From assembly GCA_012719175.1 (NCBI GenBank), contig JAAYAX010000011.1, positions 186,001 through 250,000 of the forward strand: a stretch of DNA of 64,000 nt, given 5' to 3'. Of the stretch, positions 15,449-46,184 are shown piece after piece. Origin of the DNA: Methanomassiliicoccus sp. Lineage in GTDB: Archaea; Thermoplasmatota; Thermoplasmata; Methanomassiliicoccales; Methanomassiliicoccaceae. A program made the translations under genes and the position numbers. Within the stretch, counting starts at the first letter, position 1; each line of letters begins with the position of its first letter. A model generated the notes under the pieces. The model was not told where the DNA came from. It was given only the letters and a program-made list of their open reading frames with translations, and did not search any database.

Positions 15449-16525
15449 GTGATGGGCGAGATGACCGCGGTGATCCTCGCCGGCGGAGAGGGGACCCGCT
15501 TGCGGCCGCTCACCAACACCCGGCCCAAACCTCTGCTTCCGGTTCTGGGGAGACCGTGCCTGGAGTACGTGATACGCGCCCTGGTGGACGCCAACGTGGG
15601 CACCGCATATCTGACATGTGGCTACCGCTCCCGGGATATGGTCGACGCTCTGGGCAGCGGCAGGCAGTTCGGCATCGACCTCCGTTTCACATTCGAGGAC
15701 CACCCTGCAGGAACGGCCGGCGCGGTGAAGCTGTTGCAGAGCAAGCTCAGCGGCACGATTGTGGTGGTCAGCGGGGACGTGCTCGCCGACGTCGACATCC
15801 GCTCCCTGGTGGAGTACCATCAGCAGAAGGGAGCCCTGGCTACCATGGCCTTGACCACCGTGGACAGGCCTGAGGAGTTCGGCATCGTGGGGCTTGACGA
15901 TGATGGCCGTATTGTACGCTTCAAGGAGAAGCCACGGACCGAGGAGGTGTTCTCCAACCTCATTAACGCTGGCATATATGTTCTCGAGGCCAGGGTGCTT
16001 GAGGACATCCCGCCGGGGGAGAAGTTCGACTTTTCCAAACAGCTGTTCCCCAAACTCCTGGATCGTTCTGAACGGCTGTACGGCATGCCGCTGACCGGCC
16101 TGTGGAAGGACATAGGCAGGCCCCGTGACCTTCTGGAGGCCAACATCAGGATGGCCGCAGGGAAGGGGCAGGAGATCGATGTGGAAGGGGCCTGCACGAG
16201 CGGCCCCATCGTAGCCACCCGCTTCCGGGCCTACGGCTGCAGGATCGAGGGCCCGTCCTATGTGGGCGAGGGAGTCTCCATCGGCACAGGGGCCACCCTC
16301 TCCTGCTGTGCCATCGGGAACGGCGCGGAGGTAGGAGAGGATGCGATCATCACCGACTCCATGCTCATGGACGGCTGCACCGTGGGGAAAGGGTCGAAGA
16401 TCGCCGGTTGCGTTATAGGAAAGGATTGCTGCATTGGCGATGACGTTCACCTGACGAATATCCTCATGGGGGACCACGTGCACCTGGACGGACCCATGGA
16501 GGTCAGGGACAGGACCTTGGAGTAG
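15449..16525 (+). CDS. NDP-sugar pyrophosphorylase with left-handed beta-helix domain
   Basis: A 358-aa sugar-1-phosphate nucleotidyltransferase. The N-terminal Rossmann part has LAGGEGTRLRPLTNTRPKPL near residue 10, the VVSGDVLADVDI metal site and FKEKPRTEEVFSNLINAGIY. From about residue 240 the sequence becomes hexapeptide-like (VGEGVSIGTGA, IGNGAEVGEDA, VGKGSKIAG), giving a GMPP/GlmU-like beta-helix. The nucleotide (GTP, UTP or dTTP) and sugar are not fixed by sequence alone. Mannose- or heptose-1-phosphate guanylyltransferase is a reasonable guess given the glycan locus downstream. The start is GTG 15449 with GAGGT seven bases upstream, or ATG 15452/15461. Confidence 0.88.
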   Translation: MMGEMTAVILAGGEGTRLRPLTNTRPKPLLPVLGRPCLEYVIRALVDANVGTAYLTCGYRSRDMVDALGSGRQFGIDLRFTFEDHPAGTAGAVKLLQSKLSGTIVVVSGDVLADVDIRSLVEYHQQKGALATMALTTVDRPEEFGIVGLDDDGRIVRFKEKPRTEEVFSNLINAGIYVLEARVLEDIPPGEKFDFSKQLFPKLLDRSERLYGMPLTGLWKDIGRPRDLLEANIRMAAGKGQEIDVEGACTSGPIVATRFRAYGCRIEGPSYVGEGVSIGTGATLSCCAIGNGAEVGEDAIITDSMLMDGCTVGKGSKIAGCVIGKDCCIGDDVHLTNILMGDHVHLDGPMEVRDRTLE

Positions 16526-25005: not shown

Positions 25006-25096
25006 CAAATCGCTTTGTCGGTTCGACCAGGCCTAATCAGACTCTTCTGGCTATAAACCATGCAGGGGATAGGTCAGGGCTTTCAGAAGGATGAGC

Positions 25097-27291: not shown

Positions 27292-28382
27292 ACGATAGCC
27301 CACTGGCCATTTTCGATGGCAGGACCGTTCTGGTCACCGGGCATACTGGATTCAAAGGCACCTGGTTGTCCCTTTGGCTGAAGATGCTGGGGGCAAGGGT
27401 TGTGGGTCTATCCCTCGCTCCCCCCCAGGGAGAACCATCTATGTTCGAGAGCGTCCGTCTGGAGGGTAAGATAACCAACATAATAGGGGACATCTGCGAT
27501 CGAGAGATGGTCCGAGAGATCATTCACGAGCACCGCCCTTCAATCGTGATCCACATGGCAGCACAGACCCTGGTGAACCGTTCGTACAGGGAGCCGAGGG
27601 AGACGTTCGACACCAATGTGCTGGGCACGATCAATATTCTTGAAGCCATCCGTATGGAGGGTGGCGTTAAGGCCTGCACCGTGGTCACCAGCGACAAATG
27701 CTATAGCAACGACGGTCGGGACCGGGCTTACGTTGAAGAGGACTGCCTCGGGGGCAAGGACCCGTACAGCGCCAGCAAGGCAGCGGCGGAGATAGTGACC
27801 GCATCTTACCGCTGGTCGTATTTCTCTACTCCGGATAACGCCATGGCCTTGTCCACGGCAAGGGCAGGAAACGTCATCGGAGGAGGGGATTGGGCAGAGG
27901 ACCGCATCGTGCCCGACATTGTTCGAGGCCTCCTCACTGGGAAGTCCATTCCTGTCCGCAATCCCGCCTCTGTCAGGCCCTGGCAGCATGTGCTGGAGCC
28001 TCTGAACGGATACCTCATGTTGACGGCCAAGATGTTTCTGGAGAACGAGACCTTCTCAGGCCCCTGGAACTTTGGACCGGACCACCGCAACTGCACCGTC
28101 CAGGACCTCGTGGAGAGGTTCATCAAATCATGGGGTGAAGGTTCCTGGGTTTATTCTGGCAAGGCCTCGGACAGGCAGAAGGAAGCGCGAACGCTCCGAT
28201 TGGACAGCACCAAGGCCAAGAGAGGTCTGGGCTGGCGGCCCCAACTGCTCCTCGATCAGGCGGTTGACCTGACCGTGGATTGGTACAAGGCCGACACATC
28301 AGAAAGCTACGACATGGGCGAGTTCTCGGAGCAGCAGATCAGAGAATATTCCTCCATGTCCACCACTGAGAGCAGGGAGTAG
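27276..28382 (+). CDS. rfbG: CDP-glucose 4,6-dehydratase RfbG
   Basis: A 368-aa extended SDR that converts CDP-glucose to CDP-4-keto-6-deoxyglucose. The NAD-binding motif is VLVTGHTGFKGTWLSLWL (the GHTGFKG form typical of RfbG), then HMAAQTLVNRSYREP, VVTSDKCYSN, YSASKAAAE (YxxxK), and GNVIGGGDWAEDRIVPD. VRPWQHVLEPLNGYL is another family hallmark. ATG 27276 lies inside the end of rfbF, so translation is probably coupled. The gene order rfbF-rfbG-rfbH is the same as in bacterial O-antigen loci. Confidence 0.95.
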   Translation: MEEMVDDSPLAIFDGRTVLVTGHTGFKGTWLSLWLKMLGARVVGLSLAPPQGEPSMFESVRLEGKITNIIGDICDREMVREIIHEHRPSIVIHMAAQTLVNRSYREPRETFDTNVLGTINILEAIRMEGGVKACTVVTSDKCYSNDGRDRAYVEEDCLGGKDPYSASKAAAEIVTASYRWSYFSTPDNAMALSTARAGNVIGGGDWAEDRIVPDIVRGLLTGKSIPVRNPASVRPWQHVLEPLNGYLMLTAKMFLENETFSGPWNFGPDHRNCTVQDLVERFIKSWGEGSWVYSGKASDRQKEARTLRLDSTKAKRGLGWRPQLLLDQAVDLTVDWYKADTSESYDMGEFSEQQIREYSSMSTTESRE

Positions 28383-28386
28383 GACC

Positions 28387-29748
28387 ATGGATGAGCTTCC
28401 CTTTGACCCCTTGGTCAATCATAACGCCGACACCACTGCTGCGGCGCAGGAGCTTCGCAGCTCCATCCTAGAGCTGGTAGGAAGATACTTCGATAGCGTG
28501 AACGGTGGCCGTAGGTTCGAGCCCGGGAAGACCTACCTCCCGGCGGCCCAGAAGGTCCTTGACGCCGATGATATCCGATCCCTGGTCTCGGCCAGCTTGG
28601 ATTCTTGGCTGACAACGGGACGCTTCAACGATGAGTTCGAAAGGCGCTTGGCGGAAGCTGTGGGCGCCAGGCACGCCCGAACGGTCAACTCCGGTTCCTC
28701 CGCAAATCTACTGGCAATATCGTGTCTGACCTCCCCGGCGTTGAAGGAGAGGAGATTGCAGAAGGGCGATGAGGTGATCACGGTCGCGGCCGGATTCCCC
28801 ACCACTGTTAACCCCATAGTCCAGAACGGCCTGGTCCCTTCCTTTGTGGACGTGGGACTGCCGAGCTACAACATCGACACCGAAGCTATGGAGGACGCTA
28901 TCTCGGAAAGGACCAGGGCGGTGATGGTCGCCCATACTCTGGGGAACCCGTTCGACGTGACGAAGGTTAAGAGCATTTGCAGGAAGCATTCCCTGTGGCT
29001 TATCGAGGACTGCTGCGATGCTCTCGGATCGCGTTTCGAAGGACACCCCGTAGGCTCGTACGGGGACATCGGGACCTTCAGTTTCTACCCTGCCCACCAC
29101 ATCACCATGGGCGAGGGGGGTGCCGTGTCCACGACCAACGACCAGTTGGCCGTCCTGCTGGAGTCGTTCCGGGACTGGGGCCGGGATTGCCGCTGCCCTC
29201 CCGGTAGGGAGAACGTCTGCGGGAACAGGTTCGGCCACAAGTTCGCGAGCCTCCCCGAGGGATACGATCATAAGTATGTCTACTCCCACCTGGGTTACAA
29301 TCTTAAGATAACGGATATGCAGGCGGCCATCGGTCTCTCCCAGTTAGGGAAGCTACCGGAGTTCGTGAAGAGGAGGAAAGAGAACTTTTCTAGAATGAGG
29401 GATGCTCTCTTCGATCTAGAGGAGGACATTATTCTGCCTGAGGCCACCCCCGGCAGCGAACCTTCCTGGTTCGGTTTCCCTATTACCGTAAAGGACACAG
29501 GGGGCAAGGGGGCCAAGAGGCACACCCTGATCGAGCACCTGGATAGGAAGAGAGTGGGGACCCGCCTTCTATTTGCGGGCAACATGACCAAGCAGCCATG
29601 CATGGAGGGGGTAGTGCACCGTGTTCATGGAAACCTAATCAATACCGACAGGATAATGTACGACACCTTCTGGATCGGTGTCCATCCCGGTCTTACGGAT
29701 GAGATGGTGGACTATATGGCGGAGGCCTTGAAAGGGTTTTTCCGCTGA
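28387..29748 (+). CDS. rfbH: CDP-4-keto-6-deoxyglucose 3-dehydrase RfbH (E1)
   Basis: A 453-aa PLP-dependent dehydrase that removes the C3 hydroxyl group, the key step to 3,6-dideoxyhexoses. It belongs to the DegT/aminotransferase fold, but the lysine that would bind PLP is replaced by histidine in FYPAHHITMGEGG (near residue 237). That replacement defines E1 as opposed to aminotransferases. Cysteines for the [2Fe-2S] cluster are in EDCCDALGS (209/210) and WGRDCRCPPGRENVCGN (268, 270, 278). The E1 reductase partner (E3, RfbI/AscD) is not in the window, so a general ferredoxin reductase may replace it. The gene starts 4 bp after rfbG. Confidence 0.95.
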   Translation: MDELPFDPLVNHNADTTAAAQELRSSILELVGRYFDSVNGGRRFEPGKTYLPAAQKVLDADDIRSLVSASLDSWLTTGRFNDEFERRLAEAVGARHARTVNSGSSANLLAISCLTSPALKERRLQKGDEVITVAAGFPTTVNPIVQNGLVPSFVDVGLPSYNIDTEAMEDAISERTRAVMVAHTLGNPFDVTKVKSICRKHSLWLIEDCCDALGSRFEGHPVGSYGDIGTFSFYPAHHITMGEGGAVSTTNDQLAVLLESFRDWGRDCRCPPGRENVCGNRFGHKFASLPEGYDHKYVYSHLGYNLKITDMQAAIGLSQLGKLPEFVKRRKENFSRMRDALFDLEEDIILPEATPGSEPSWFGFPITVKDTGGKGAKRHTLIEHLDRKRVGTRLLFAGNMTKQPCMEGVVHRVHGNLINTDRIMYDTFWIGVHPGLTDEMVDYMAEALKGFFR

Positions 29749-32180: not shown

Positions 32181-35100
32181 ATGGGAATGAGGAATGTGAT
32201 CTGGACATGGTTGGAGGAGAGGCGGTACATTTTTGCCGCTGCGATCCTCATTTCCCTGGCCCTGACCTGCATCATATTCTTGTCGTTCCTCCTGAAGGCC
32301 GGAGTGGTCAATACCGGCGATCTGACCTGGCCATACTTCAACGAACCCGGCCTGACCGGCCTGTATCTTGACAACACCCAATCGGGCCTCATCCCCAGCC
32401 AGATGCTGGTGTATTCCTGGCTGTTCTATCTCCCCCTGGATACCGCCATCCAGGAGCGGCTCCTGTTGATGGGAGTATTCTTCCTAATGGGTGTTTCCTG
32501 CTACTACGCCACTTTCAGGATACTGCAGCAGGAGGGGGCCGAAAAGAAACTGGCCTATGTGGTGGCAGGGGCCGCCACCGTAGCTTATGTGGTCAATCCC
32601 CTGAACTTCTACTACTTGGTCGACCTGTTCCTCCTCATCGGCTTCGCATTGGTCCCTGCCCTGATCTACGTAGTGCTACGGTTCCTGAGGTCAGAGGGTT
32701 CCATCAAGGACATCGTGGTCCACGGGGTACTGACAGGAATCATAATGACCGCCTCCTCCGGGGACCCCAGATGGCCGATCTGGAACCTTTTCCTGATCAT
32801 GATCATCCTTTTAGTGTACCTGGTCTTGGGACGATTCAAGGGCTTGTCCAAGAGCGTGGGATTCCTCATCATCACTGGCATCTGCTTCACTGCCCTGAGC
32901 GCCTTCTGGATTGTGCCAACGCTAGCGGCATCGGGCCACTCCACCCTCCTTACCCGTTCGAACCTATCCATCAACTTCTACTACGTTCTGAACAAGTACG
33001 CGACGCTGGACAATACCATCATTCTTCAATCAGATTTCTGGACGCCTTCCCGCGAGCTGTTCCTGATCAGCGATACGTTTCTGAACAGCATCTGGAAGAC
33101 CGCGCAGATGGTCCTGCCGGCCTTAGCTTTCATTTCGATCCTGTTCTTCAGGCGGAATCGCACCGTGATATCACTGCTCATCATATCCTTGATCGTCATA
33201 TTGCTGGCCTCCGCCCCATTGTCCCCCCTCCAATTTTTAAAGGACGCTTATCAGTCACTGGTGTTCGAGGCTCCCTTCGGCATCGCCTTCCGTACCTCAT
33301 ACAAGTGGCTGCTCATCCTGGTATACCCATATGTACTCCTGGCATCGTTCACCATCCTTGGCCTCTCCAGACTGCCGTCCAAGTTCAACTTGAAGGTGCC
33401 AAGGTTACGCCTGGACGGCCGGAGGCTGACCAAGGTGGTCGCGGGGTCGTTGGTAACGCTCCTGGTAGCCTCCAGCCTCATCGCGGCATGGCCCCTGGTC
33501 ACTGGGGATTGCAGGGGGGTGATCGCACCGGAGGAGCTTGCTAGCGACTATGTTGAGGCCTTTGACCTCATTCAGGACGCTTCCGGCGGCGACCTCGGCT
33601 TCAAGATACTCTATCTGCCTACCAACCCATACATGGGGTTCGAGGCACCGGGCTTGGCCGACTCCCCCTACCTTCATTACATAATAACGAACCTTGAGAG
33701 CGGAAACGTGACCACTGCAGGAGGGCTGCTGGCCCCCTTGGGGGTGAAGTACATCATCCTGGACAAATTCGATTATTCCAAGGATGTCATGGAATCGTCA
33801 TTGAGGAACCAGACCGATCTCATGATCCGTTTGGACGGGGAGCGGCTCCTGGTCCTTGAGAACGGGGAGTTCGGCGACCTGTTCCGTTTATCAGACCTGG
33901 CCTTGAGCTTCGACGGTATCGAGGGCGGGGCAGCACTGGCAGCCTGGGATGGCTGGGTCCAGACGGACCAAGGTTTCCTGGACCTCGAGGAAGTCTACGA
34001 CCAGGCCCCATATCTGCTGATGGGTTCCGGTTATCCTTACAATCTGATTGCCTCCAGATCTATCACATCATCTCCTTTCAAGTACGTGCCCTACTACGGG
34101 GACCAGTCCTGGACCTGCCTGGTGGCGTACAACCCGTCGAACTACGAATGGTACCAGGCCTTGAAGACCATGGGCCTGGAGAATTGGGACCTGGACTACG
34201 GCGAGGGGCTGGCGTACACCAATGTTAGCTTGACCTATCCCCGAGACCTGCCCATATCCGACACCGCTTTGGTCAAGCAGTTCGACCTTTCGAACAGGTC
34301 CACGGTCCAGGAGTTCATCGATAACAACTACATGGAGCAGTTCGGTGCCCGGATGACCTATACTCCGGAGCTGAGCTACATGAAGGTGAAGCTCCTCGAC
34401 TCCACCGACGGGTGGAAGACCATCTGCTCACCCCTGGTGAACGTCTCCTATGGTCAAACATACGCCATCAAAATGAACATGGCCTCCGATAACGGCTTCG
34501 AGATTCACATCAAGGTCGCCGAGTACGATGAGAACGGCACCCTCCTCTCGTTCAAGCCCATGACGGGACTGGGGAGTGGTAAGATCCCCTGGGGCACGGT
34601 GCCGATGAGCTATGTGTGCAATAACACCGAGGTGAAGAAGATCAGCATCCAGATATGGCACGGTTCCAGTCCCACCACGCCACTGCCTAACGCCATATCG
34701 ATAGCGGACATCTCCATTTATGACACCAGCAAGCTGCTCATCTCTCCCCGCCTGGATGGCAAGATCGAGGTGGCGTCAGGGGGTGAATATCTCCTTAATG
34801 TGAGAACGTTGAGCAGCCCCCAGGGTGGTAACCTGACCGTGGTAATCGACGGGACCACAGTGAGATTGGAGACCAAAGGTAAAGGAACCGTCATGAAATG
34901 GTTCAACTGTGGGACGATGAACCTGTCCGCGGGAACCCATGAAGTGTCTGTATTGAACACGGACGGCCTGAACGCAGTGAACCTCATCTCCCTCATAGAT
35001 GTAGGCGAGTACAACTCCCTTCTGGAGAGATATAACTCCCAGCTTTCAGAGAAGGCCCTGGTCTATGTTCTGGACAACGGCGTGAGGACTGGCGCCACCG

Positions 35101-35780
35101 AGCTCGTGATGAACAACGACACCTCGAAAGGACCCTTAGGCCAATACCTGGCGATGGACACTGAGATCGAAGTGTTCGTGGATGGCTACTATCGCTTCTA
35201 TGTCCAGAGTAACAGCAACGTTTCATTGTGGCTCGATGGTAGTGAGGTGGAGAGCCTGAACGCCCCAACCCACTACGTGACGGTCTATCTGGAAGTAGGA
35301 GCCCATAACATTACATTTCTGGCAGAGGACCCGTCTAACTCTTCAGGCGAGGTTCTCCTGTTCTCCGCCAATGCCGGCGATACCATCGCCTCGCTAAACG
35401 AGTTCGGTAGCACGTTGGGAGGTATCTCGTCAATGGAGAAGGAGAGCGCTTCATCTTACGATCTGAGATTGTCCACCACCGGGCCGTCCTTTCTTATTTT
35501 CAACAACGCCTTCGATTCAGCTTGGTCAGTGACGCCAGAGGGAGGGGAGACGGTCTCCTCGTTCCCGGTCAACACCGCTATGAACGGCTTCATAATGGAG
35601 GGAAGCGGCAACATATCGCTCTCCCTGTCATACTCCCTTGACAGGCATTACATTCTGGGGATGACCATCTCCCTCATCGCACTCGTTACCATCATCGCCG
35701 GTGCCATAATCTATTACTCTGGTGCGGGGACAAGGTTGATCATAAAAGTTCGAGGCAAGCGGAACGGAAGAGGTCAATAG
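32181..35780 (+). CDS. giant GT-C-like membrane protein with extracytoplasmic beta-domains (1)
   Basis: A 1199-aa membrane protein. Residues about 18-440 hold ten or more hydrophobic helices with the pattern of GT-C glycosyltransferases. The first outer loop has GDLTWPYFNEPG (candidate catalytic Asp), and FEAPFGIAFRTSYKWLL precedes a helix, as in AftD-like or YfhO-like enzymes. Residues about 450-1160 are extracytoplasmic with many N-glycosylation sites. Repeated carbohydrate-binding-module-like sheets are visible, for example YLLNVRTLSSPQGGNLTVVI with LSAGTHEVSVLNTDG. Near the end is a conserved FNNAFDSAWSVTPEGG / NGFIM domain, then a C-terminal anchor helix and a basic tail. Two related proteins follow at 35811 and 40104. 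Confidence 0.82.
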   Translation: MGMRNVIWTWLEERRYIFAAAILISLALTCIIFLSFLLKAGVVNTGDLTWPYFNEPGLTGLYLDNTQSGLIPSQMLVYSWLFYLPLDTAIQERLLLMGVFFLMGVSCYYATFRILQQEGAEKKLAYVVAGAATVAYVVNPLNFYYLVDLFLLIGFALVPALIYVVLRFLRSEGSIKDIVVHGVLTGIIMTASSGDPRWPIWNLFLIMIILLVYLVLGRFKGLSKSVGFLIITGICFTALSAFWIVPTLAASGHSTLLTRSNLSINFYYVLNKYATLDNTIILQSDFWTPSRELFLISDTFLNSIWKTAQMVLPALAFISILFFRRNRTVISLLIISLIVILLASAPLSPLQFLKDAYQSLVFEAPFGIAFRTSYKWLLILVYPYVLLASFTILGLSRLPSKFNLKVPRLRLDGRRLTKVVAGSLVTLLVASSLIAAWPLVTGDCRGVIAPEELASDYVEAFDLIQDASGGDLGFKILYLPTNPYMGFEAPGLADSPYLHYIITNLESGNVTTAGGLLAPLGVKYIILDKFDYSKDVMESSLRNQTDLMIRLDGERLLVLENGEFGDLFRLSDLALSFDGIEGGAALAAWDGWVQTDQGFLDLEEVYDQAPYLLMGSGYPYNLIASRSITSSPFKYVPYYGDQSWTCLVAYNPSNYEWYQALKTMGLENWDLDYGEGLAYTNVSLTYPRDLPISDTALVKQFDLSNRSTVQEFIDNNYMEQFGARMTYTPELSYMKVKLLDSTDGWKTICSPLVNVSYGQTYAIKMNMASDNGFEIHIKVAEYDENGTLLSFKPMTGLGSGKIPWGTVPMSYVCNNTEVKKISIQIWHGSSPTTPLPNAISIADISIYDTSKLLISPRLDGKIEVASGGEYLLNVRTLSSPQGGNLTVVIDGTTVRLETKGKGTVMKWFNCGTMNLSAGTHEVSVLNTDGLNAVNLISLIDVGEYNSLLERYNSQLSEKALVYVLDNGVRTGATELVMNNDTSKGPLGQYLAMDTEIEVFVDGYYRFYVQSNSNVSLWLDGSEVESLNAPTHYVTVYLEVGAHNITFLAEDPSNSSGEVLLFSANAGDTIASLNEFGSTLGGISSMEKESASSYDLRLSTTGPSFLIFNNAFDSAWSVTPEGGETVSSFPVNTAMNGFIMEGSGNISLSLSYSLDRHYILGMTISLIALVTIIAGAIIYYSGAGTRLIIKVRGKRNGRGQ

Positions 35781-35810: not shown

Positions 35811-38800
35811 CTAAACCCCCTTACCCGGGTATTTTCTCTGCCCCCTCCACCCCTTCCAGAGGAATAGGCCTGGAACCAGTAGGGCCGTGCCTATCACAGC
35901 TATCGGGATCCCGGAAGCAAGCCATGATTGTGGTTTGTACTCGACGGTGACGTCGGCATCCCCTGAGACGTTGATGATGAAGCCGTTGAGATATCCCCCC
36001 ACCGGTCGGGATACCACCTCCTGGCCTTCGAAGGAAAGCGCCCAATCCCCATCATAAACGGTCCCTGTTACCACTAGTATCTCTCCGTCCCCGTTCAAGC
36101 GAACCCGGTAGTGGGTAGGGTCGGAAGTGTCTACAGAGGTAACGTTGACACTATCGGTGCCATCATCGAAAATCCCGGACAGCTCTGAGGCGTTCGCGGA
36201 GTGCAACCATAGGGAGTCGAAGATGGCATTCGCACCTCCAGTGTTCCTGACCGCCACCAGGTGCTCTCCGGTGGTCAGATTTACAGTGCCGACATAGGTG
36301 CCGTCGAGGAAGTCGCCGTTCGCCTGGAATGGCGTCCCATCTATCAGCACCTGAATATCGCCATCGCCCACGGCCACCATCCTCAGGACCCTCCCGTCCA
36401 GGACGTTCATTGTGCCCGTGACCTCCTGGCCAGGCGATAGGGAAACGGCCGATCCTTGGCTGTATCGCCCGCTGTAATGCAGGTTTACTTCAGGATCACC
36501 CCCCATGTTCCTCCCCGCTTCCATTACGTACACGTTCTCCGAGGAGGACAGGATCGAGCTTGCCGACGAGAGAGCCGTGTCCCATCCGACCCCATCATTG
36601 ATCATGATCAGATTCACCGCATTGAATCCGCCGATGTTCCTCAATGACAGAATGTGCTCTCCTGCAGCCATGTGAACGTCTTCCAGCGTGGACCAACGGA
36701 ATCGGTTGAGGGAGGAGCCAGCGTCGATGGTGGCCACCTCCTCACCGTCCAGGGCTAGAACGAACGAGCCCCCCTGGACGTTCTCCAGGTACCGCGTGGA
36801 TATCAAGTAGTTACCCTCCGAAGGCACCTTCACGGATAGGTCCAACACCGAACCCGCATCGGTGCTGTTGGCCCACGTCAAGACCAGGCCTCGCCCATAG
36901 TCAAGGTCCCATCCCTCGATCCCCATCTGCAGTAGGTAATCCCTCCAGTTGGCATGCAGCCGGTCCAGGGTGGAGGCCTTTGACCACATGCTGTCGGGAT
37001 CGTGATGGTCGGTGCTGTCGAAGGGAGAGATCACTTGACCTTTGCCTTCCAGAAGCACCAGGTCCTCGGTCTGCGCGTTGGATATCAGCAACGTCCCGGT
37101 GGAGAATGACGATCCTTTTTCCTGCTGGGGGAACAGGATCCCTGTACGAACGGGATCGAAACCATCGACCCAATTCAGGGCGCGAAGATCGTCAAGGCTG
37201 CCCAGGACGGTCACCTTGTTCTCGGTGGCATAGGCTCTCACCGCCTCCCCCATCACCTCGTACACATGAAGTGCCCCATCATCGCGAACAAGGGTCATGT
37301 CCTTCTGCCAGGCCAGGGATGATCTCATATCCTGGGTCAGGTCCAGCAAGGAGGGTATGTCGTCCCTCAGGACGAGGTACTTCACGCCCGCTGTGGACAG
37401 GTACCGCCCGAAGTGATCGGTCTTGTTCTCAGCGAGGGTCTGGCTCAGGAAGGACCGGTAATATGCTCCATAAAGCGAGGTACCCCCGATGTCCGGTTTT
37501 CCAGAGTACATGTTATCGAGGTTGGCGACCATCTTTGTGGTCCAGTTCGTGGCGAGACCGGTCGAGGTGGGCAGCCACAGGACATTGAAATCCCCTTCCA
37601 GACTAGCCAACCAATCATTGGTGTCCAGGTATTCGGACGGTATCTCCACTGGAGCATATATGTCATTGAGGTAACCGTTGACACTGGGTCCCGCGTAAAC
37701 GGCGAAGCAAGAGAGCACCATGGCCACCACAACCCCCGCGGCCACGGCCTCGTTACGCATCTCTGAGCCTAATTTCCACTTACCCTTGAGGCGATCGGTG
37801 AGGCCAAGGATGGTCAGCACCATCAGCATGGAATAGATCAGGAACAAGGGACCGGACCACTTGTCCGGGTCCCTCAAGACCCATCCCAGAAAACCAAATG
37901 GAGAATCGAACGTGAGCCACACGTAGATGCCACCCAGCGGCCAGTTGGTGCCCAGGGATAGAAAAGTGAAGATCAACGCCATTCCCACAAGAAAGAGCGT
38001 GAGTCGGTCCCGCCGGAAGACCAGGGCAGCGTAGGCAACGACCGGCACCACCAGGCTTACGATCTCCCACACGATCTCCAGGCCCCCATGGGCCACTATG
38101 TCCACCCTAGGCCACCAGTAACCCACCCCCCTGATCACATTAAATGGATCGGAATTGAAGCTGAGCATGTCCAGTACCTCAACGGTGAGGACGCTGGAAG
38201 GTCCGCCGGCACCTTCCAGGATGGAGAGGATGTAAGGGACTATCCAGTACATGCTGCTGACAAGGAACACCAGGGTCAGGAGGGACAGCGACTTGAGGGA
38301 CGACGCTCGCTGCTCCCAGGTGGAACGCCCAACCACATGATAGGCGAAGGCTCCTGCGATCAGGATACCTAAGAACAAGGTATAATGGACCGATGTCGAT
38401 CCCACCGTCCACAGCAGGCCTGTGAGCACCAGCGTCTTTACGTCATGGTCACCGAGCCCTTTCATGGCCCCGATGAAGATGATAGGGGCCAGCGCGTATC
38501 CTGTCCACAGGAAGTAATGTTCGATGCGGTTCATCGACCAAGGATTGAACATGTAGACGACGGAGACACACACAGCGGCTAAGACCAAGGCCACGTCCCC
38601 CATTCCTGGCCATGCCTTTCTGCCAATCCATAAGGCGGCCACGTATGAGGCCAGGCCTGCGACGGTCAGGGTGCCCAAGATCATCATCTTGATGAAGGTC
38701 TCAGTAGGAACCCCGATGATCATGGCCAGGTTGATGGGTATGCCAAAACCCAGCAGCCGGTCGGTCTTGTCCAGGTTTGAATATTGGCCATACTCTGTCC

Positions 38801-39035
38801 ACATCGGATAAAGCTCAAAACGATCCAGTTCCCTAGGTGTGTTGAAGTCCCCGTACATGATGGTTCCGGGCGAGAGTATTATGTTAGATCCTACGAAGCA
38901 GACCAGCAAGACAATTAGGGCTGCTCCCAGTAGCACGACCCTATATTTCAGAAGGAACGCTTTGAACCGTCTAGGAATTCCCGAGATATCTAACCAGTTC
39001 ATTCTGAGCGAGGAGGATATATCCGATTCAGTCAT
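35811..39035 (-). CDS. giant GT-C-like membrane protein with extracytoplasmic beta-domains (2)
   Basis: A protein of about 1,074 aa, paralogous to the one at 32181. The membrane half (residues about 25-450) has MYGDFNTPRELDRFELYPMW in the first outer loop and FDSPFGFLGWVLRDPDKWSG before a later helix. The outer half has at least two CBM-like repeats, FVLALDGEEVATIDAG with MAAGEHILSLRNIGG, and IQVLIDGTPF with LTTGEHLVAVRNTGG. It ends with the shared GTVYDGDWALSFEGQEVV / GYLNGFI domain, a helix and a basic tail. The motif GWDLDYGRGL matches WDLDYGEGL in paralogue 1. ATG 39035 has AGAGG just upstream; GTG 39050 is an alternative. Confidence 0.82.
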   Translation of the reverse strand: MTESDISSSLRMNWLDISGIPRRFKAFLLKYRVVLLGAALIVLLVCFVGSNIILSPGTIMYGDFNTPRELDRFELYPMWTEYGQYSNLDKTDRLLGFGIPINLAMIIGVPTETFIKMMILGTLTVAGLASYVAALWIGRKAWPGMGDVALVLAAVCVSVVYMFNPWSMNRIEHYFLWTGYALAPIIFIGAMKGLGDHDVKTLVLTGLLWTVGSTSVHYTLFLGILIAGAFAYHVVGRSTWEQRASSLKSLSLLTLVFLVSSMYWIVPYILSILEGAGGPSSVLTVEVLDMLSFNSDPFNVIRGVGYWWPRVDIVAHGGLEIVWEIVSLVVPVVAYAALVFRRDRLTLFLVGMALIFTFLSLGTNWPLGGIYVWLTFDSPFGFLGWVLRDPDKWSGPLFLIYSMLMVLTILGLTDRLKGKWKLGSEMRNEAVAAGVVVAMVLSCFAVYAGPSVNGYLNDIYAPVEIPSEYLDTNDWLASLEGDFNVLWLPTSTGLATNWTTKMVANLDNMYSGKPDIGGTSLYGAYYRSFLSQTLAENKTDHFGRYLSTAGVKYLVLRDDIPSLLDLTQDMRSSLAWQKDMTLVRDDGALHVYEVMGEAVRAYATENKVTVLGSLDDLRALNWVDGFDPVRTGILFPQQEKGSSFSTGTLLISNAQTEDLVLLEGKGQVISPFDSTDHHDPDSMWSKASTLDRLHANWRDYLLQMGIEGWDLDYGRGLVLTWANSTDAGSVLDLSVKVPSEGNYLISTRYLENVQGGSFVLALDGEEVATIDAGSSLNRFRWSTLEDVHMAAGEHILSLRNIGGFNAVNLIMINDGVGWDTALSSASSILSSSENVYVMEAGRNMGGDPEVNLHYSGRYSQGSAVSLSPGQEVTGTMNVLDGRVLRMVAVGDGDIQVLIDGTPFQANGDFLDGTYVGTVNLTTGEHLVAVRNTGGANAIFDSLWLHSANASELSGIFDDGTDSVNVTSVDTSDPTHYRVRLNGDGEILVVTGTVYDGDWALSFEGQEVVSRPVGGYLNGFIINVSGDADVTVEYKPQSWLASGIPIAVIGTALLVPGLFLWKGWRGQRKYPGKGV

Positions 39036-39091
39036 AAACCTCTTCTTCACAGCGTTGTGGAGGACAGAAGGATGCCCTGCCCTCTTAGCTC

Positions 39092-40079: not shown

Positions 40080-40103
40080 ATGCCGTCACAATCTGTAGAC
40101 ATT

Positions 40104-43100
40104 ATGGGATGGCAGCCCCGTATCGCTTCTTTGCGGACATACGTCCGCGATCTGAACTGGCGGCGGCACTTGGCGTTCGCTATCGTCCTGACCGCGTTGA
40201 CCGCGGTCCTCTTCTTCGGATATCTCTCAGGTCCCCTCCCCACCGGTACCGACTCCGAGGGGCTGGTCATGACCTGGGACATGGGCCTGTCTTCCGGTGG
40301 TCTGTTCTCTAGCTGGGAACCATACTCCGCTCTAGGATTTCAGAACGACCCCATACCACTTCCATCGGCCATGTTCACATTGGCCTCTTGGATGGGTCTG
40401 TCGGCCTCTGACATGTGCAAGATCATAATGGCAGGCTCCTTCTGGCTTGCGGGCGCAGCCATGTACCTATGCGCACTGAGGATCTCCAGGAGCTACCTGG
40501 GGTCAGGGGTCGCAGCCATTGTTTTCTGCTTCAATCAGGTGTTTCTGTCACAGATCCTTGAAGGACACTACTTCTTTGCCATAGGTTTCGCCCTGTTGCC
40601 TATCGCGTTCCTTACATTGTACCTGGCTATAGTGGAGGAGAATCGCCGGGCAGTTCTCGCGCTACCTATCGTCTTTTTCACTTACGGCGGCAGCTCCGCT
40701 CCCCACATGATACTCATCCTCAGCATATTCATCGTGGTGATGTCAGCCCTCTATTTCATCCAGGACCGGACGCGGCTGCACCGCACCGTGTATCCATTGA
40801 TCGCACTGGTCCTGCTGGTGATCCCAACCGCCCTTTCCCGCTTCTCCTCAGGCACGGGCATCCTTAACGCGTCCTACCGTCTCAGCGAAGCCCAGTTCTG
40901 GAGCTATCGAGACATCTTCTCCGCCCTGGCCCTCCGGTCCACGGAAAATTCGCACATGCGTGGTGGAACGGTCCAGAGCTGGGTCATCGTTGACGGTATG
41001 GACGACGTAATGATGATCATTTCCTTAGCGATCCCCATCCTGGCCGTATTGTCCTTGTATTTCAAGGAGCATCGCCAGCTTAAACTAGCCCTTGCGGGAA
41101 CGGGGCTGGTGATGCTGTTCTTCGCCCTGGGTCCGAACCAGCTTCTGTCCGGGGCGTTCGTCTGGATGTTCCAGAACGTCCCTCTGTTAGATAGCATCAG
41201 GGTCTTCTCCCGCTTCGGCATGTTCTTAGGCCTGGTGTACGCTATTTTGTTGGCCCTCCTGATCGCGGACCTTCAGAAACGTCCCTCGGTGAATCTGAGC
41301 ATCCCCCGATTGCCCAGCCTTCGTGTGCGGCAATCAGATAAGCTAGTGGCCGCTACCGCTGTCATGGTCGTGCTGGTGTCGTCCTCTTCGGTCTTCATCC
41401 AAGGGCCGTCATCCTTCACCCTTCCCAATTCCTACGCTGAACCCTTCGAGCTCATATCGACCATCGATGGCGACTACCGTATCCTCACCCTTCCTTACGG
41501 GGACGTCTACTACGATACATCGCTGGGCAAGTATGATGGGTACCCTCTGACCCTGACCAACGACCCCGGCTCCTACAGCCAGATAGTGACCGGCAAGGAG
41601 GTGGCCTACGGAGATCACAGCGAGGACTACTGGTCTGTGTGGGGAGCAATGATGTCCGAGCACAGGTATGGATACCGTTATCTGCCCATTCTCTTGGGGG
41701 ACACCGCCAGTGTCCGCTACGTGGTGGCACAGGTGCACTCTCCTGCAGGCGAGCTGAGCGACTTCAGGAACATGACCGGCCTCAGCGAATACGCGGTCCT
41801 TGCCGGAAAATCCACCGTCATGGTCAATGAACATTATGATGGTAGAGCACATACCGCCAACTCCTTGACCCTGACCACCGGTGGAAGGGCCGACATCTTG
41901 ACCGCGATTGCAGGCGGTGTCGTCAACCTCACGGATACAGATCTGGTATTGCTCGGGCAGATCGATGACAGCGCCGTACTTAACGCTCTCTGGGCCACCT
42001 CGCCCCATATCATAGTTCAGGAGGGCGATCTCCTGCAGCTTCTCGTCGAGAACGGTGCCTTTAACGAGGGCCAGCTTGTACATCTTGGTGAGTATGCGGA
42101 AGATACCTTGGACGACAGCAGCAGGTATTGGATCACCTCTTCCGATACCGTGAGGGACGGGTCATCGCTCCATGACAGTGCATACACCGATGGTCAAAAT
42201 GTCATGGAGGCCCCATTGACGGCAGGTGGAGCTGGCAGCTACGATGTCTACCTGAGGCATAGGACCGGTCCTGGGTCAGGAAACCTCTCGGTGACCGTTG
42301 ACGGTCAGGGTGCGGTCGCAGTACCTACCTACTCGCCCTTGTCCAGGGAGATCTGGACCAAGGTAGATACGTATGGTTTGAGCTCTTCTAAAATAACAGT
42401 TAAACTATCCTGCGACGGCTCCGGATGGTGCAGTGTGAGCGACATGCTCGTCGTGCCATCAGGGAATGTGGATGAGAAAACATCGGAGATCTCCGAACTG
42501 TTGGAGAACAGCTCCAGTTCGGTAACCTTTGTCTATGGGCCGGATGACCTGGCCATGGGGGTACAGGATTGGGGTTTGATGGAAGGCATGGAGGGTTGGG
42601 GCCTATCCTACAATGGTTCAGAGGACCCTTCCTTGGCAGTGAACGCGCTGATCCCTTTCGACGGCCTCTGGAGGATAACCCTGAGGACCATGAACGCCTC
42701 CACCGCTCCTTCGGCCATGATCGAGGGCGTTCCTATCGACGCCACCGACCTGGGGGACGGCTCTTTCGCCTTTGAGGTCAACCTCATAAAAGGGCTAAAG
42801 ACCATCGAGCTGAGAACATCCAGTGCGTACTCCGTGACCATCGGGAGCGACGGCCGCGATACCGGGGACGATCTGGCGGAAGCGGTCGTGACATATGAGA
42901 GAAAGAGCCCATGGAGCTACGTGGTCAATGTGAGCACGACCTCTCCCACCTTCCTGAAGCTGTCTGAAAGCTTCAGTGATCAGTGGACCGCACACAATGG
43001 TTCGGAGGCACTTCTCCACTATCAGTCCGGCTCCCAGGTCAACGGTTATTATTTGCCTTCAGCAGGTAACTACTCCATTACCATCGACTACGACTGGCAG

Positions 43101-43211
43101 GAGAGATACCAGACGAATCAGGTGGTCTTCATAGCCGCCACCTTAACAGCGACGGTAGTGCTGGCCGCGGCCTTATGGTGGAAAAAGGGACGGAACAATG
43201 CCCGTCAGTAA
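40104..43211 (+). CDS. giant GT-C-like membrane protein with extracytoplasmic beta-domains (3)
   Basis: A protein of 1,035 aa, third member of the giant family. The membrane half (residues about 15-440) has GTDSEGLVMTWDMGLSSGG in the first outer loop and a late DSIRVFSRFGMFLGLVYAIL, corresponding to the FRTSYKW and RDPDKWSG regions of the paralogues. The outer half has CBM-like units (SYDVYLRHRTGPGSGNLSVT; LWRITLRTMNASTAPSAMI) and a GMEGWGLSYNG motif matching the paralogues. The terminal domain FLKLSESFSDQWTAHNGSEA / QVNGYYLP precedes an anchor helix. It lacks the double aspartate of paralogue 1's first loop but keeps acidic residues there. Confidence 0.82.
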   Translation: MGWQPRIASLRTYVRDLNWRRHLAFAIVLTALTAVLFFGYLSGPLPTGTDSEGLVMTWDMGLSSGGLFSSWEPYSALGFQNDPIPLPSAMFTLASWMGLSASDMCKIIMAGSFWLAGAAMYLCALRISRSYLGSGVAAIVFCFNQVFLSQILEGHYFFAIGFALLPIAFLTLYLAIVEENRRAVLALPIVFFTYGGSSAPHMILILSIFIVVMSALYFIQDRTRLHRTVYPLIALVLLVIPTALSRFSSGTGILNASYRLSEAQFWSYRDIFSALALRSTENSHMRGGTVQSWVIVDGMDDVMMIISLAIPILAVLSLYFKEHRQLKLALAGTGLVMLFFALGPNQLLSGAFVWMFQNVPLLDSIRVFSRFGMFLGLVYAILLALLIADLQKRPSVNLSIPRLPSLRVRQSDKLVAATAVMVVLVSSSSVFIQGPSSFTLPNSYAEPFELISTIDGDYRILTLPYGDVYYDTSLGKYDGYPLTLTNDPGSYSQIVTGKEVAYGDHSEDYWSVWGAMMSEHRYGYRYLPILLGDTASVRYVVAQVHSPAGELSDFRNMTGLSEYAVLAGKSTVMVNEHYDGRAHTANSLTLTTGGRADILTAIAGGVVNLTDTDLVLLGQIDDSAVLNALWATSPHIIVQEGDLLQLLVENGAFNEGQLVHLGEYAEDTLDDSSRYWITSSDTVRDGSSLHDSAYTDGQNVMEAPLTAGGAGSYDVYLRHRTGPGSGNLSVTVDGQGAVAVPTYSPLSREIWTKVDTYGLSSSKITVKLSCDGSGWCSVSDMLVVPSGNVDEKTSEISELLENSSSSVTFVYGPDDLAMGVQDWGLMEGMEGWGLSYNGSEDPSLAVNALIPFDGLWRITLRTMNASTAPSAMIEGVPIDATDLGDGSFAFEVNLIKGLKTIELRTSSAYSVTIGSDGRDTGDDLAEAVVTYERKSPWSYVVNVSTTSPTFLKLSESFSDQWTAHNGSEALLHYQSGSQVNGYYLPSAGNYSITIDYDWQERYQTNQVVFIAATLTATVVLAAALWWKKGRNNARQ

Positions 43212-43240
43212 TATTTACATCAACAGACCTGACACCCAGG

Positions 43241-44125
43241 ATGGCATCGGTCTCCGTCGGGGTTTGCGCGTACAATGAGGAGAAGAACATCCTAAGCTCC
43301 CTTCGTTCGCTCATGGGGCAGAGGGAGGAAGGCTTCTCCTTGAAGGACATCGTCGTCGTGTCCAGCGGCAGCACCGATCGCACTGATGATATGGTCTTAG
43401 AGGTCAGCCGGTCCGATGAGCGCATCCGGCTGCTGAGGCAGGAAAGGAGGGAGGGCAAGAACTCTGCCGTCAATCTCTTCCTCTCCCAGGCTCAAGGGGA
43501 CGTTTGTGTCCTGGTGAACGCTGACAACACTCTGGAGCCGGACTCCCTAACCAAACTCCTCGCGCCTTTCAGCGACCTCACCGTGGGGATGGCTGGTGGA
43601 AGGCCAGTACCCACCAATGACAAGGGCACGGTGTCAGGGTTCGCCGTCCACATGCTCTGGGACATGCACCACCGCCTTTCGCTTCTGTATCCCAAGGTCG
43701 GCGAGCTGGTGGCCTTCCGGAATCTGGGCATCACCCTGCCGACGACGATGCAGTCAGATGAGGACATCATGCGGATGGAGCTGGAGAAGAAGGGGCTGCG
43801 GACGGTGTACGTACCCGAGGCCATCGTGCATAACAAGGGCCCCACGACCGTCCGCGACTTCCTCAAGCAGCGGACCAGGGTGAACATCGGGGAGCAGTAC
43901 ATGAAGCGCATCTACGACTATGATATTCCCACTTGGAACCCCAGGTGGCTTTTCCAGTCTTACTTGGGCTTCCTCAGGGACAACAGCCGGGAGCTCCCGC
44001 GGACCATTGCCGCAATGAGCCTGGAGGCCTATGCCCGGATCTATGCCATGCTGTACGTGAAGATGGACCGTGGTGACAAGGCGGTGTGGAGCCAGGTCAG
44101 CTCAACCAAGGACGTGGGGAAGTGA
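43241..44125 (+). CDS. GT2 glycosyltransferase
   Basis: A 294-aa GT2 enzyme with SVGVCAYNEEKNILSSLRSL, DIVVVSSGSTDRTDDMV, VLVNADNTLEPDSL as the DxD-like site and, in the acceptor half, TTMQSDEDIMRMELEKKG with the ED motif. KQRTRVNIGEQYMKR resembles the QxxRW-like region of processive enzymes, but it is not canonical. I chose ATG 43241 because a TATA-like TAATATTTAC at 43208-43218 lies about 25-30 bp upstream; the longer frame from 43175 would start inside the preceding gene. It converges with the SIS-HAD fusion gene with a 3-bp gap. Confidence 0.86.
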   Translation: MASVSVGVCAYNEEKNILSSLRSLMGQREEGFSLKDIVVVSSGSTDRTDDMVLEVSRSDERIRLLRQERREGKNSAVNLFLSQAQGDVCVLVNADNTLEPDSLTKLLAPFSDLTVGMAGGRPVPTNDKGTVSGFAVHMLWDMHHRLSLLYPKVGELVAFRNLGITLPTTMQSDEDIMRMELEKKGLRTVYVPEAIVHNKGPTTVRDFLKQRTRVNIGEQYMKRIYDYDIPTWNPRWLFQSYLGFLRDNSRELPRTIAAMSLEAYARIYAMLYVKMDRGDKAVWSQVSSTKDVGK

Positions 44126-44128
44126 GCT

Positions 44129-45160
44129 CTACTCCTTCAGTATGGCGTCCACCGCGTCGTTGAAGTCGAAGCCCCCCTTCACTTTGAAGGTCCGGCAGCC
44201 CGCAACCCGCCCCATGGTCACATCGTGGTCCCCGTCCCCTATCACAAAAGAGGAGCGAAGATCTATGTTCAGGTCCCTGACCGCCCTCTCCAGCATCCCC
44301 GTGGCAGGCTTGCGGCAGGAGCAACCCTCTTCCGGGCGGTGGGGGCAATAGTATATGGCATCCAAATGTGCCCCGTCCACGTTCAGGTCAGCCTTCAACT
44401 TCTCATGGATAGCATCAAGAGAGGCCACATCGAAGTAGCCGCGGCCCACCCCTGATTGATTGGTGACCAGGACCACCAGGAATCCCGCATCGTTCAGCCT
44501 CCTGATGGAATGACCGACCCCGGGTAACAGGTGCAGATCCTCTGGTCGGGAGCAATAGGGCACGTCCTTGGCGATGGTGTCATCGCGGTCTACAAATACC
44601 GCCTTGTGTCCGAACATTCCCTTCTCCACCAGGCCACAGATGATGTGACCGGCGCACATGTACGCCTCCTGGATGCGCGGCGTGCTCTGCGTAGGTATGG
44701 TCAACGCGAGGTCCACCATATCCTTTATCGTACCACCCGGCCCGGTGAATCCGACCGTGAAGGCACCCAGTTCCCTCGCCCGTTCCAGGGCCAGGACGAC
44801 GTTCCTAGATGTCCCGCTGGTGCTGAGGCCTACAGCCACATCCCCTTTGCGGATGCATGCCTCCAGCTGGCGCACGAACACCCGCTCGTAACCGTAATCG
44901 TTACCTATGGCGGAGATGGAGGACAGAGAGGTCAGGGCCATTCCATCAAGGGCCGGGCGTTCCATCAGGTACCTTCCTGAAAGCTCGGCGGCCAGGTGCA
45001 TGGCGTCGGCCGCGCTTCCCCCGTTCCCGAAGAACACCACCTTGCACCCCTGTCTGAACGCGCAGATCATGGCCTGGGCGATTGCCTCTATCTGCTGAGG
45101 ATCGACCGTACCGATCACGGAGGCGGATTCCTGAAGCTCATTCTCGATCAGCATGCTCAT
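44129..45160 (-). CDS. GmhA-GmhB fusion: sedoheptulose-7-P isomerase / heptose-bisphosphate phosphatase
   Basis: A 343-aa fusion. Residues 1-180 are a SIS-domain phosphoheptose isomerase (FFGNGGSAADAMHLAAELSG, then SISAIGNDYGYERVFVRQLE and VGLSTSGTSRNVVLALERA). Residues about 185-343 are a HAD phosphatase of the GmhB/histidinol-phosphatase type (AVFVDRDDTIAKDVPYC, LVTNQSGVGRGYF, YYCPHRPEEGCSCRKPATGM with the zinc loop, SFVIGDGDHDVTMG). Together with the kinase encoded just upstream it covers the first three steps from sedoheptulose-7-phosphate to heptose-1-phosphate. ATG 45160 has GGAG eight bases upstream and overlaps the kinase gene by 23 bp. In bacteria these are usually two proteins. Confidence 0.92.
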   Translation of the reverse strand: MSMLIENELQESASVIGTVDPQQIEAIAQAMICAFRQGCKVVFFGNGGSAADAMHLAAELSGRYLMERPALDGMALTSLSSISAIGNDYGYERVFVRQLEACIRKGDVAVGLSTSGTSRNVVLALERARELGAFTVGFTGPGGTIKDMVDLALTIPTQSTPRIQEAYMCAGHIICGLVEKGMFGHKAVFVDRDDTIAKDVPYCSRPEDLHLLPGVGHSIRRLNDAGFLVVLVTNQSGVGRGYFDVASLDAIHEKLKADLNVDGAHLDAIYYCPHRPEEGCSCRKPATGMLERAVRDLNIDLRSSFVIGDGDHDVTMGRVAGCRTFKVKGGFDFNDAVDAILKE

Positions 45161-46184
45161 CGCAATATCTCCAGGTCTGCAAACCGTACTTGTCGAAGTT
45201 GTAATTGACGATATCCACACCCATCTTTGCTAGCTCGTTGGCCACGGTGTGCTTGCGGTCGTACTCACATATGAAGAACATGAACCCTCCTCCTCCCGCT
45301 CCAGAGATCTTCCCTCCCACGGCCCCGTTGGTCAGCGCGGTCTCGTATATCATGTCCAGACGGTCGTTGGATATTTTAGAGGTGAAGCGCTTCTTGTACT
45401 CCCAGGACTCGTTGAGCAGCTCTCCGATGAGCCGAATGTTCCCTCTTAATAGAGCGTCCTTGGTCTCCCGTGCAAGGCGCTTGGTGTTCTCCAATGCGTC
45501 CACCACCTGCTCGTCCCTTCCAACGTACCCGGCGGTCTGGCTCTGGATGATGTTGGAGGATGCACGGGTCTTCCCGGTGTTGCCCAGGAGCAGCTGGTAG
45601 TGCAGCTCGTTCAGGATGTCGGTCTTGACCCGCAAAGGAGTGACGATGTTCTGCTGGCCATTGAACTCCATGAAGTTGAAGCCCCCGAACACTGCCGCAT
45701 ACTGGTCCTGCTTTCCTCCCGCCAATCCCAGCTCCTTGCGCTCCAGCACGTAGGCGAGGTTGGCGATGTCGTACTGGGACAGGGGCTCGTTCAGCCACTC
45801 CGCCATAGCTCCGATTATTGATACGATGACGGTTGAGGAGGAACCCAGGCCGGACCCTGGAGGCGCCTCGCAGTGCAGGAACATATCGAAGCCCCGTGAT
45901 ACCTCGAAGTGGTTCAGAACCGCCTTTATGAGGTCGAGGTTGCCATCATAGGTGAACATATCGCCGTTGGCACGCCACTTCTCCACCACACCGTAGTCCA
46001 GTGACCGGATGGTTATCTCCCGATCGTCCCGCGGGGAGATGGTGCAGTACGCGAAGCGATCGATAGTGGAATTTAGGACCGCACCGCCACGCTCGTCACA
46101 GAAAGGTGGAACATCGGTCCCCCCACCAGCGAAGCTGATCCGCAACGGTGCCTTACTGCGTATCAGCTGCTTCCTGTCGCCCAT
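45138..46184 (-). CDS. hddA: D-glycero-D-manno-heptose-7-phosphate kinase HddA
   Basis: A 348-aa GHMP-family sugar kinase. The N-terminus RSKAPLRISFAGGGTDVPPF is the HddA hallmark, followed by the ATP-binding loop PPGSGLGSSSTVIVSII, LAYVLERKELGLAGGKQDQY and the C-terminal GKISGAGGGGFMFF. It phosphorylates heptose-7-phosphate at C1 in the GDP-heptose route. Its stop lies inside the GmhA-GmhB gene, so the two are coupled. ATG 46184 is 25-35 bp from a TATA box (AATTAAATAAA, 46209-46219), implying a leaderless mRNA. The guanylyltransferase HddC is not adjacent; the pyrophosphorylase at 15449 is a distant candidate. Confidence 0.92.
   Translation of the reverse strand: MGDRKQLIRSKAPLRISFAGGGTDVPPFCDERGGAVLNSTIDRFAYCTISPRDDREITIRSLDYGVVEKWRANGDMFTYDGNLDLIKAVLNHFEVSRGFDMFLHCEAPPGSGLGSSSTVIVSIIGAMAEWLNEPLSQYDIANLAYVLERKELGLAGGKQDQYAAVFGGFNFMEFNGQQNIVTPLRVKTDILNELHYQLLLGNTGKTRASSNIIQSQTAGYVGRDEQVVDALENTKRLARETKDALLRGNIRLIGELLNESWEYKKRFTSKISNDRLDMIYETALTNGAVGGKISGAGGGGFMFFICEYDRKHTVANELAKMGVDIVNYNFDKYGLQTWRYCDEHADRE

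What the first reader, a model, noticed from the sequence alone, without database searches (positions are those of the whole stretch)
44129..46184. Archaeal heptose-phosphate module with a GmhA-GmhB fusion
HddA kinase and a single protein combining the isomerase (SIS) and the bisphosphate phosphatase (HAD) are encoded with overlapping genes. This gives three enzymes of the GDP-D-glycero-D-manno-heptose route in two polypeptides. Because the phosphatase step normally follows the kinase, a fusion of the first and third enzymes suggests a complex with HddA. Heptoses are typical of bacterial LPS and S-layer glycans, so their presence here points to acquired surface chemistry.
Basis: partly seen in the sequence, partly recalled or inferred. 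Interest (0 to 1): 0.65.

Follow-up and report, generated by a model that had tools for sequence, protein, structure and literature searches.

The report
Archaeal fused GmhA-GmhB heptose enzyme
A methane-producing gut-type archaeon carries the bacterial recipe for a seven-carbon sugar, with two of its enzymes joined into one protein, and this joined form turns out to be inherited across its order rather than being peculiar to this genome.

Summary
Window 44129-45160(-) encodes one 343-aa protein, a GmhA-type isomerase (residues 1-183) joined to a GmhB-type phosphatase (187-343). It overlaps by 23 nt the 348-aa HddA-type kinase gene at 45138-46184(-). The organism belongs to the Methanomassiliicoccales. 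Matches spanning both domains occur in 47 of 81 genomes (own plus relatives). HddA co-occurs with the fusion and lies directly 5' in 48 of 51 fetched loci. Catalytic residues are invariant in 17 of 17 aligned proteins. S7P-forming enzymes are present; the ADP-heptose kinase and GT9 are absent, which fits the HddA/alpha route.

No HddC passes its family cut-off. The 15449 pyrophosphorylase family sits directly 5' of hddA in 17 of 51 relatives' loci, but also occurs in 26 of 28 genomes without the module, so it is a candidate, not a proven HddC. A complex with HddA is not needed: outside the order gmhA and gmhB are adjacent genes (19 of 28 loci with both), once separated only by an in-frame TAA and a short spacer. 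Heptose is not foreign here: Thermoplasma N-glycan contains it. Unexpected extra: in two relatives the junction Lys codon is TAG, the pyrrolysine codon.

The parts
44129..45160 (-). gmhA-gmhB fusion gene, 343 aa, ATG start at 45160
   Evidence: start Met invariant in 17 of 17 aligned orthologues
44612..45160 (-). GmhA (SIS) domain, residues 1-183; Zn/active-site residues H55, E59, Q164, H172
   Evidence: ligand spacing as in N. gonorrhoeae GmhA (PMC5387315 passages)
44603..44611 (-). junction residues 184-186 (G-H-K); no linker; Lys186 codon AAG, which is TAG in two relatives
   Evidence: model secondary structure: helix 160-183, next strand 187-190; codons
44129..44602 (-). GmhB (HAD-IIIA) domain, residues 187-343, plus stop; D191-x-D193, zinc loop C272 H274 C280 C282, K284
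45138..46184 (-). [quoted passage not shown]
   Evidence: phylogeny
45138..45160 (-). 23-nt overlap of hddA 3' end with fusion 5' end
   Evidence: sequence
15449..16525 (+). ntpA: GMPP-like sugar-1-phosphate nucleotidyltransferase with C-terminal hexapeptide repeats; candidate for the HddC step, unproven
43175..44125 (+). family-2 glycosyltransferase, convergent with the fusion; conserved neighbour, candidate heptosyltransferase (inference)
   Evidence: directly 3' convergent in 26 of 51 fetched loci

Best explanation
[quoted passage not shown] The GmhA half of the fusion isomerises sedoheptulose 7-phosphate, HddA phosphorylates C1, and the GmhB half removes the 7-phosphate. A GMPP-like nucleotidyltransferase (most likely the 15449 protein) then makes the NDP-heptose (probably GDP), which a local glycosyltransferase adds to a surface glycan, plausibly an N-glycan. 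The fusion most likely arose once, in an ancestor of the Methanomassiliicoccales, by loss of the stop between adjacent gmhA and gmhB genes, and has been inherited with losses. Physically it should be a GmhA tetramer carrying four GmhB lobes right after the last GmhA helix. Shown here: domains, conserved residues, gene order, co-occurrence, distribution. Inferred: substrates, nucleotide, acceptor, oligomer.
For: Domains and solved homologues. Zn ligands and HAD/zinc-loop residues invariant in 17 of 17 (ligand identities from PMC5387315 passages). Confident model, pLDDT 90.5 and pTM 0.84, with no linker. HddA in 51 of 81 genomes, all 51 among the 53 with the fusion or part of it; adjacent in 48 of 51 loci. 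Transketolase and transaldolase present. HldE and GT9 absent. Order monophyletic for HddA (99), SIS (97), HAD (96). Pre-fusion arrangement hddA>gmhA>gmhB with one in-frame TAA plus a short spacer in another Thermoplasmata family (L182). STT3 homologue in the genome.
Against: All three proteins score below the NCBIfam equivalog cut-offs. No HddC equivalog in the genome. ntpA occurs in 26 of 28 genomes that lack the module and is about as close to a solved UTP-glucose enzyme as to mannose-1-phosphate guanylyltransferases, so the nucleotide is open. The HAD half also resembles HisB-N. No biochemical data for this order were found.
Confidence: 0.8

Rival explanations
1. One reading: the fusion of steps 1 and 3 exists because it forms a channeling complex with HddA, which supplies step 2.
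For: The fusion and hddA are genetically almost inseparable (48 of 51 loci) and their genes overlap, so co-translation in one place is plausible.
Against: gmhA and gmhB are already neighbours as separate genes outside the order (19 of 28 loci with both; loci were selected partly for matching both domains, so this is biased upward), and L182 needs only loss of a stop and a short spacer. In one genus the HAD stands alone with a divergent SIS gene nearby (L089, L145), so fusion is dispensable. No interface evidence was sought or found.
Confidence: 0.15
2. The module makes another phosphorylated sugar: the SIS domain acts on a ketose phosphate other than sedoheptulose 7-phosphate, or the HAD is a histidinol-phosphatase-like enzyme.
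For: Scores below equivalog cut-offs; HisB-N among fold neighbours.
Against: All four GmhA metal/active-site residues kept, gmhA outscoring DiaA (161 vs 88 bits), gmhB outscoring HisB-N models (161 vs 94 and 89), and constant partnership with HddA, itself closest to HddA/WcbL structures.
Confidence: 0.1
3. Recent lateral acquisition of bacterial surface chemistry by this genome's lineage.
For: The HddA clade of the order groups with Chloroflexota (83-88 support) rather than with Thermoplasmatales HddA-like proteins.
Against: The order is monophyletic for all three parts, other Thermoplasmata families (f20, f29, f32) fall in the same HddA clade, GmhA/GmhB-like genes occur across the class (223 of 300 genomes with a match), and GC is near the window average (0.601 fusion, 0.569 hddA, 0.565 window). 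Direction and date of any old transfer are unresolved.
Confidence: 0.1

Closest known systems
[quoted passage not shown]
   Same: Same enzyme families, residues and gene neighbourhood (e.g. Dehalococcoidia L117 hddA>gmhA>gmhB at 50/54/60% identity)
   Different: GmhA and GmhB are one protein; no HddC equivalog; archaeal host
M. tuberculosis CDC1551 fused ORF MT0122 (gmhA-gmhB, 420 aa), PMC1501019 (passages read)
   Same: Same order of the same two enzymes in one ORF; authors guessed a bifunctional protein
   Different: One strain, by a T4/T5 frameshift, not fused in H37Rv or M. bovis; authors could not wholly exclude a sequencing artefact. Here the fusion is conserved across an order
Thermoplasmata hddA, gmhA, gmhB as separate genes
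   Same: Same class; hddA-gmhA-gmhB clustered in several families (L182, L183, L186, L187)
   Different: Unfused; Thermoplasmatales HddA-like proteins are only 28-35% identical to HddA here
Thermoplasma acidophilum N-glycan with D-glycero-D-galacto-heptose (Vinogradov 2012, known only as cited in PMC12448462, passages)
   Same: A heptose in the surface glycan of the same class
   Different: galacto, not manno, configuration; biosynthesis not described in the passages read

Membership tests
GmhA (sedoheptulose 7-phosphate isomerase) | SIS fold with Zn ligands H61, E65, H183 and Q175 (N. gonorrhoeae numbering) | tested here: met
   H55, E59, H172, Q164 invariant in 17 of 17 with the same spacings; fold match 2x3y, TM 0.88 normalised by target
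GmhA (sedoheptulose 7-phosphate isomerase) | Over the TIGR00441 equivalog cut-off (209 bits) | tested here: not met
   161 bits, best of the SIS families
GmhA (sedoheptulose 7-phosphate isomerase) | Homotetramer; converts S7P | not testable with these tools
   needs protein
GmhB (heptose 1,7-bisphosphate 7-phosphatase) | DxD nucleophile motif and zinc loop C-x-H...C-x-C (motifs recalled) | tested here: met
   D191, D193, C272, H274, C280, C282 invariant in 17 of 17; 3l8h and 4pnh hits
GmhB (heptose 1,7-bisphosphate 7-phosphatase) | Over the NF006506 equivalog cut-off (178 bits) | tested here: not met
   161 bits
GmhB (heptose 1,7-bisphosphate 7-phosphatase) | Anomer preference (alpha for the HddA route) | tested here: inconclusive
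   The alpha model NF050049 scores 92 of 250 bits; only kinase type argues for alpha
HddA (heptose 7-phosphate 1-kinase) | GHMP kinase closest to HddA/WcbL | tested here: met
   NF049969 is the best family; 4usm/4n3o/3k85 far ahead of other GHMP kinases
HddA (heptose 7-phosphate 1-kinase) | Over the NF049969 cut-off (600 bits) | tested here: not met
   323 bits
HddC (heptose 1-phosphate guanylyltransferase) | Over the NF049965 cut-off (300 bits), about 221 aa | tested here: not met
   best in genome 112 bits; 15449 protein 95 bits and 358 aa
ADP-L,D-heptose pathway (HldE, GT9 transferase) | HldE kinase and GT9 present | tested here: not met
   HldE kinase domain best 28.7 of 345 bits; GT9 none

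The most novel reading that the evidence does not exclude
In two other species of the order (G063; G306 = SUTA01000012.1) the Lys codon at the exact enzyme-enzyme junction is TAG, followed in frame by an intact GmhB half. Both genomes carry PylS. In G306 no ATG/GTG/TTG follows before codon 241, past the catalytic aspartates, so GmhB can only be made by reading TAG, as pyrrolysine or by readthrough. The cell could then make GmhA alone or the fused enzyme depending on pyrrolysine supply.
Probability: 0.25. Interest if true: 0.55.

Novelty: new variant of a known kind. Interest (0 to 1): 0.36.

Why it matters
It shows that a sugar route usually discussed for bacterial LPS and capsules is a standing part of an order of often host-associated methanogens, carried by a conserved two-enzyme fusion not found in the paper searches made here. 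It gives a concrete glycan prediction for organisms whose surface chemistry is little known, and a bifunctional enzyme that can be expressed and assayed. The TAG at the junction in two relatives offers a natural test of pyrrolysine decoding outside methylamine methyltransferases.

Tried and rejected
Rejected: frameshift or chance joining (conserved in 47 of 81 genomes). Rejected: ADP-heptose branch. Rejected as proof: 15449 as dedicated HddC. The neighbourhood looked convincing (33 of 51 loci hold an ntpA-family gene), but the presence count spoke against dedication (75 of 81 genomes, 26 of 28 without the module). Tried without result: paper searches for an archaeal GmhA-GmhB fusion or heptose genes in this order, which gave only the M. 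tuberculosis CDC1551 case. Two searches for pyrrolysine decoding in this order gave listings only; none was read. Stop-codon usage as a test of TAG meaning was inconclusive: TAG ends 11 of 83 long ORFs in the G306 sample, 5 of 90 in G063, 8 of 114 in G065, 25 of 108 in G000. G061's in-frame stops (L084) look like paired frameshifts or assembly error and were not used. Trees are 'quick' searches with long branches; deep nodes in the SIS and HAD trees are weak. The nucleotidyltransferase tree did not join ntpA to bacterial HddC-like proteins. Domain distance in the model was not measured: no coordinates were available.

Full report
OBSERVATION. The two genes are as described. The fusion runs 44129-45160 on the minus strand (343 aa; the mechanical ORF starts at a GTG at 45220, but the ATG at 45160 is the conserved start, invariant in 17 of 17 aligned orthologues). 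The kinase runs 45138-46184 on the same strand (348 aa), so they overlap by 23 nt. Pfam and NCBIfam assign SIS/GmhA, HAD/GmhB and GHMP/HddA. All three scores lie below the curated equivalog cut-offs, which I count against strict membership, but each is the best family for its domain. Solved relatives are GmhA 2xbl, heptose bisphosphate phosphatases 3l8h and 4pnh, and HddA/WcbL-type kinases 4usm, 4n3o and 3k85.

ANATOMY. N. gonorrhoeae GmhA binds zinc through H61, E65 and H183 of one subunit and Q175 of its neighbour (PMC5387315, passages). The fusion has H55, E59, H172 and Q164 with the same spacings, invariant in 17 of 17 sequences. In the HAD half D191, D193, C272, H274, C280, C282 and K284 are invariant (the motif names are recalled). 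The AlphaFold2 model is confident (pLDDT 90.5, pTM 0.84): the last GmhA helix ends at residue 183 and the first HAD strand starts at 187, so there is no linker. Foldseek matches are GmhA structures for one half and heptose bisphosphate phosphatases and HisB-N for the other. If the GmhA half is a tetramer like its bacterial relatives, four phosphatase lobes would start about 15 residues after the active-site histidine; this is inference.

GENOME CONTEXT. The window lies in a 2.42-Mb, 99.6% complete genome. Named relatives are Methanomassiliicoccus and other Methanomassiliicoccales. Transketolase and transaldolase, which can supply sedoheptulose 7-phosphate, are present. The HldE kinase domain (best 28.7 bits, cut-off 345) and GT9 are absent, which points to the HddA/alpha branch. 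The surroundings (about 18-44 kb of the window) are rich in glycosyltransferases and sugar-modifying enzymes, and an STT3-family homologue is encoded elsewhere (62 bits).

DISTRIBUTION. Of 81 genomes (own plus 80 relatives), 53 match the fusion protein; 47 matches span both domains and 45 of these have no internal stop. HddA is found in 51 of 81, every one of them among the 53; the other two are G072 (weak SIS match only) and G080 (piece at a contig edge). In 51 loci fetched from relatives, hddA lies directly 5' in 48; the exceptions are two contig edges (L085, L086) and L074, where it is elsewhere. A scan of one genome per species gave 80 best loci, 22 of which I assign to this order from titles and matches. 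SIS and HAD are in one open frame in 18, all in the order; none of the 58 loci outside it is fused. In 300 genomes of the class 223 match; the best two-domain matches outside the order (G104, G094) are interrupted by stops.

ORIGIN OF THE FUSION. Outside the order, 28 of 58 loci hold both gmhA- and gmhB-like genes and in 19 of 28 they are adjacent in that order by my distance criterion (loci were picked partly for matching both domains). In L182, from another Thermoplasmata family, the order is hddA>gmhA>gmhB and an in-frame TAA plus a few codons separates the last two. So fusion needs only loss of a stop between neighbours, and no special complex with HddA has to be assumed. Trees put the order together for HddA (SH-aLRT 99), SIS (97) and HAD (96) (in the SIS tree L145, from the genus that lost the fusion, falls elsewhere on a long branch). 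The order's HddA groups with Chloroflexota and with Thermoplasmata families f20, f29 and f32, apart from Thermoplasmatales HddA-like proteins. That fits an old exchange between bacteria and archaea, but direction is unresolved. In one genus the fused state was lost: HAD stands alone with a divergent SIS gene nearby (L089; L145).

THE MISSING HddC. No protein in the genome passes the HddC model (best 112 of 300 bits). For it: genes of its family are in 33 of 51 fetched loci, directly 5' of hddA in 17 and 4.2-6.7 kb downstream on the other strand in 13; Hadarchaeum L118 has ntp>hddA>gmhA>gmhB. Against it: the family is in 75 of 81 genomes, including 26 of the 28 without the fusion, so it must have another job too. 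A general GMPP that also accepts heptose 1-phosphate is my best guess; the nucleotide is not shown.

HEPTOSE IN ARCHAEA. A 2025 paper models a D-glycero-D-galacto-heptose in Thermoplasmatales filament glycans after the published T. acidophilum N-glycan (PMC12448462, passages only; the 2012 original not seen). Heptose in this class is therefore known chemistry, which lowers the surprise and suggests an N-glycan as destination. A gmhA-gmhB fused ORF has been noted once, in M. tuberculosis CDC1551, through a T4/T5 frameshift (PMC1501019, passages). My paper searches found no report of the archaeal fusion.

A TAG AT THE JUNCTION. Position 186 is Lys or Arg in 37 of 45 fusions without a stop there. 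In two relatives, G063 (L072) and G306 (L102, SUTA01000012.1), the codon is TAG and the GmhB half continues intact in frame to a TGA. The two proteins are 75% identical to each other. Both genomes have PylS over its cut-off (267-268 bits). In G063 a GTG two codons on could restart; in G306 no ATG, GTG or TTG occurs before codon 241, past the catalytic aspartates (codons counted from zero). Either TAG is read as pyrrolysine (or through), or GmhB is not made there. Stop usage did not settle it.

VERDICT. Real and well conserved; a new architectural variant of a known pathway. It is not a sign of recent acquisition, and the HddA-complex idea is unnecessary. Interest is moderate, raised somewhat by the TAG junction.

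Noticed in passing
window 26521-29748 (+): Glucose-1-phosphate cytidylyltransferase (428 bits, cut-off 300), CDP-glucose 4,6-dehydratase (456, cut-off 278) and RfbH (692, cut-off 423) in a row: a CDP-3,6-dideoxyhexose route, typical of enteric O-antigens (recalled), in an archaeon. A sugar epimerase/dehydratase-like gene lies at 25091-26035.
   Followed up: partly
L072 (G063) junction of fusion; L102 6001-7035 (G306, SUTA01000012.1): In-frame TAG exactly at the GmhA/GmhB border in two PylS-bearing species; in G306 no restart codon before codon 241.
   Followed up: partly
G000:C4:402808-403494 and G000:C14:7385-8098: Two PylS C-terminal-domain matches over the cut-off in the window's own genome.
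   Followed up: no
L162 6582-7838 (Prevotella): A different fusion in the same pathway: one open frame matches both the GmhB domain and a nucleotidyltransferase.
   Followed up: no
L145 5992-7236; L089 8009-9191: HAD alone with a divergent SIS gene (28-29% identity) close by: the GmhA half seems lost and replaced.
   Followed up: partly
L079 and L081: Two hddA-like genes flank the fusion: the adjacent one 40-41% and the convergent one 46-48% identical to the window's HddA.
   Followed up: no
window 32181-35780 (+), 35811-39050 (-), 40080-43211 (+): Three very large proteins (1199, 1079, 1043 aa) beside the module; weak CBM_35 hits in two, no Pfam hit in the third.
   Followed up: no
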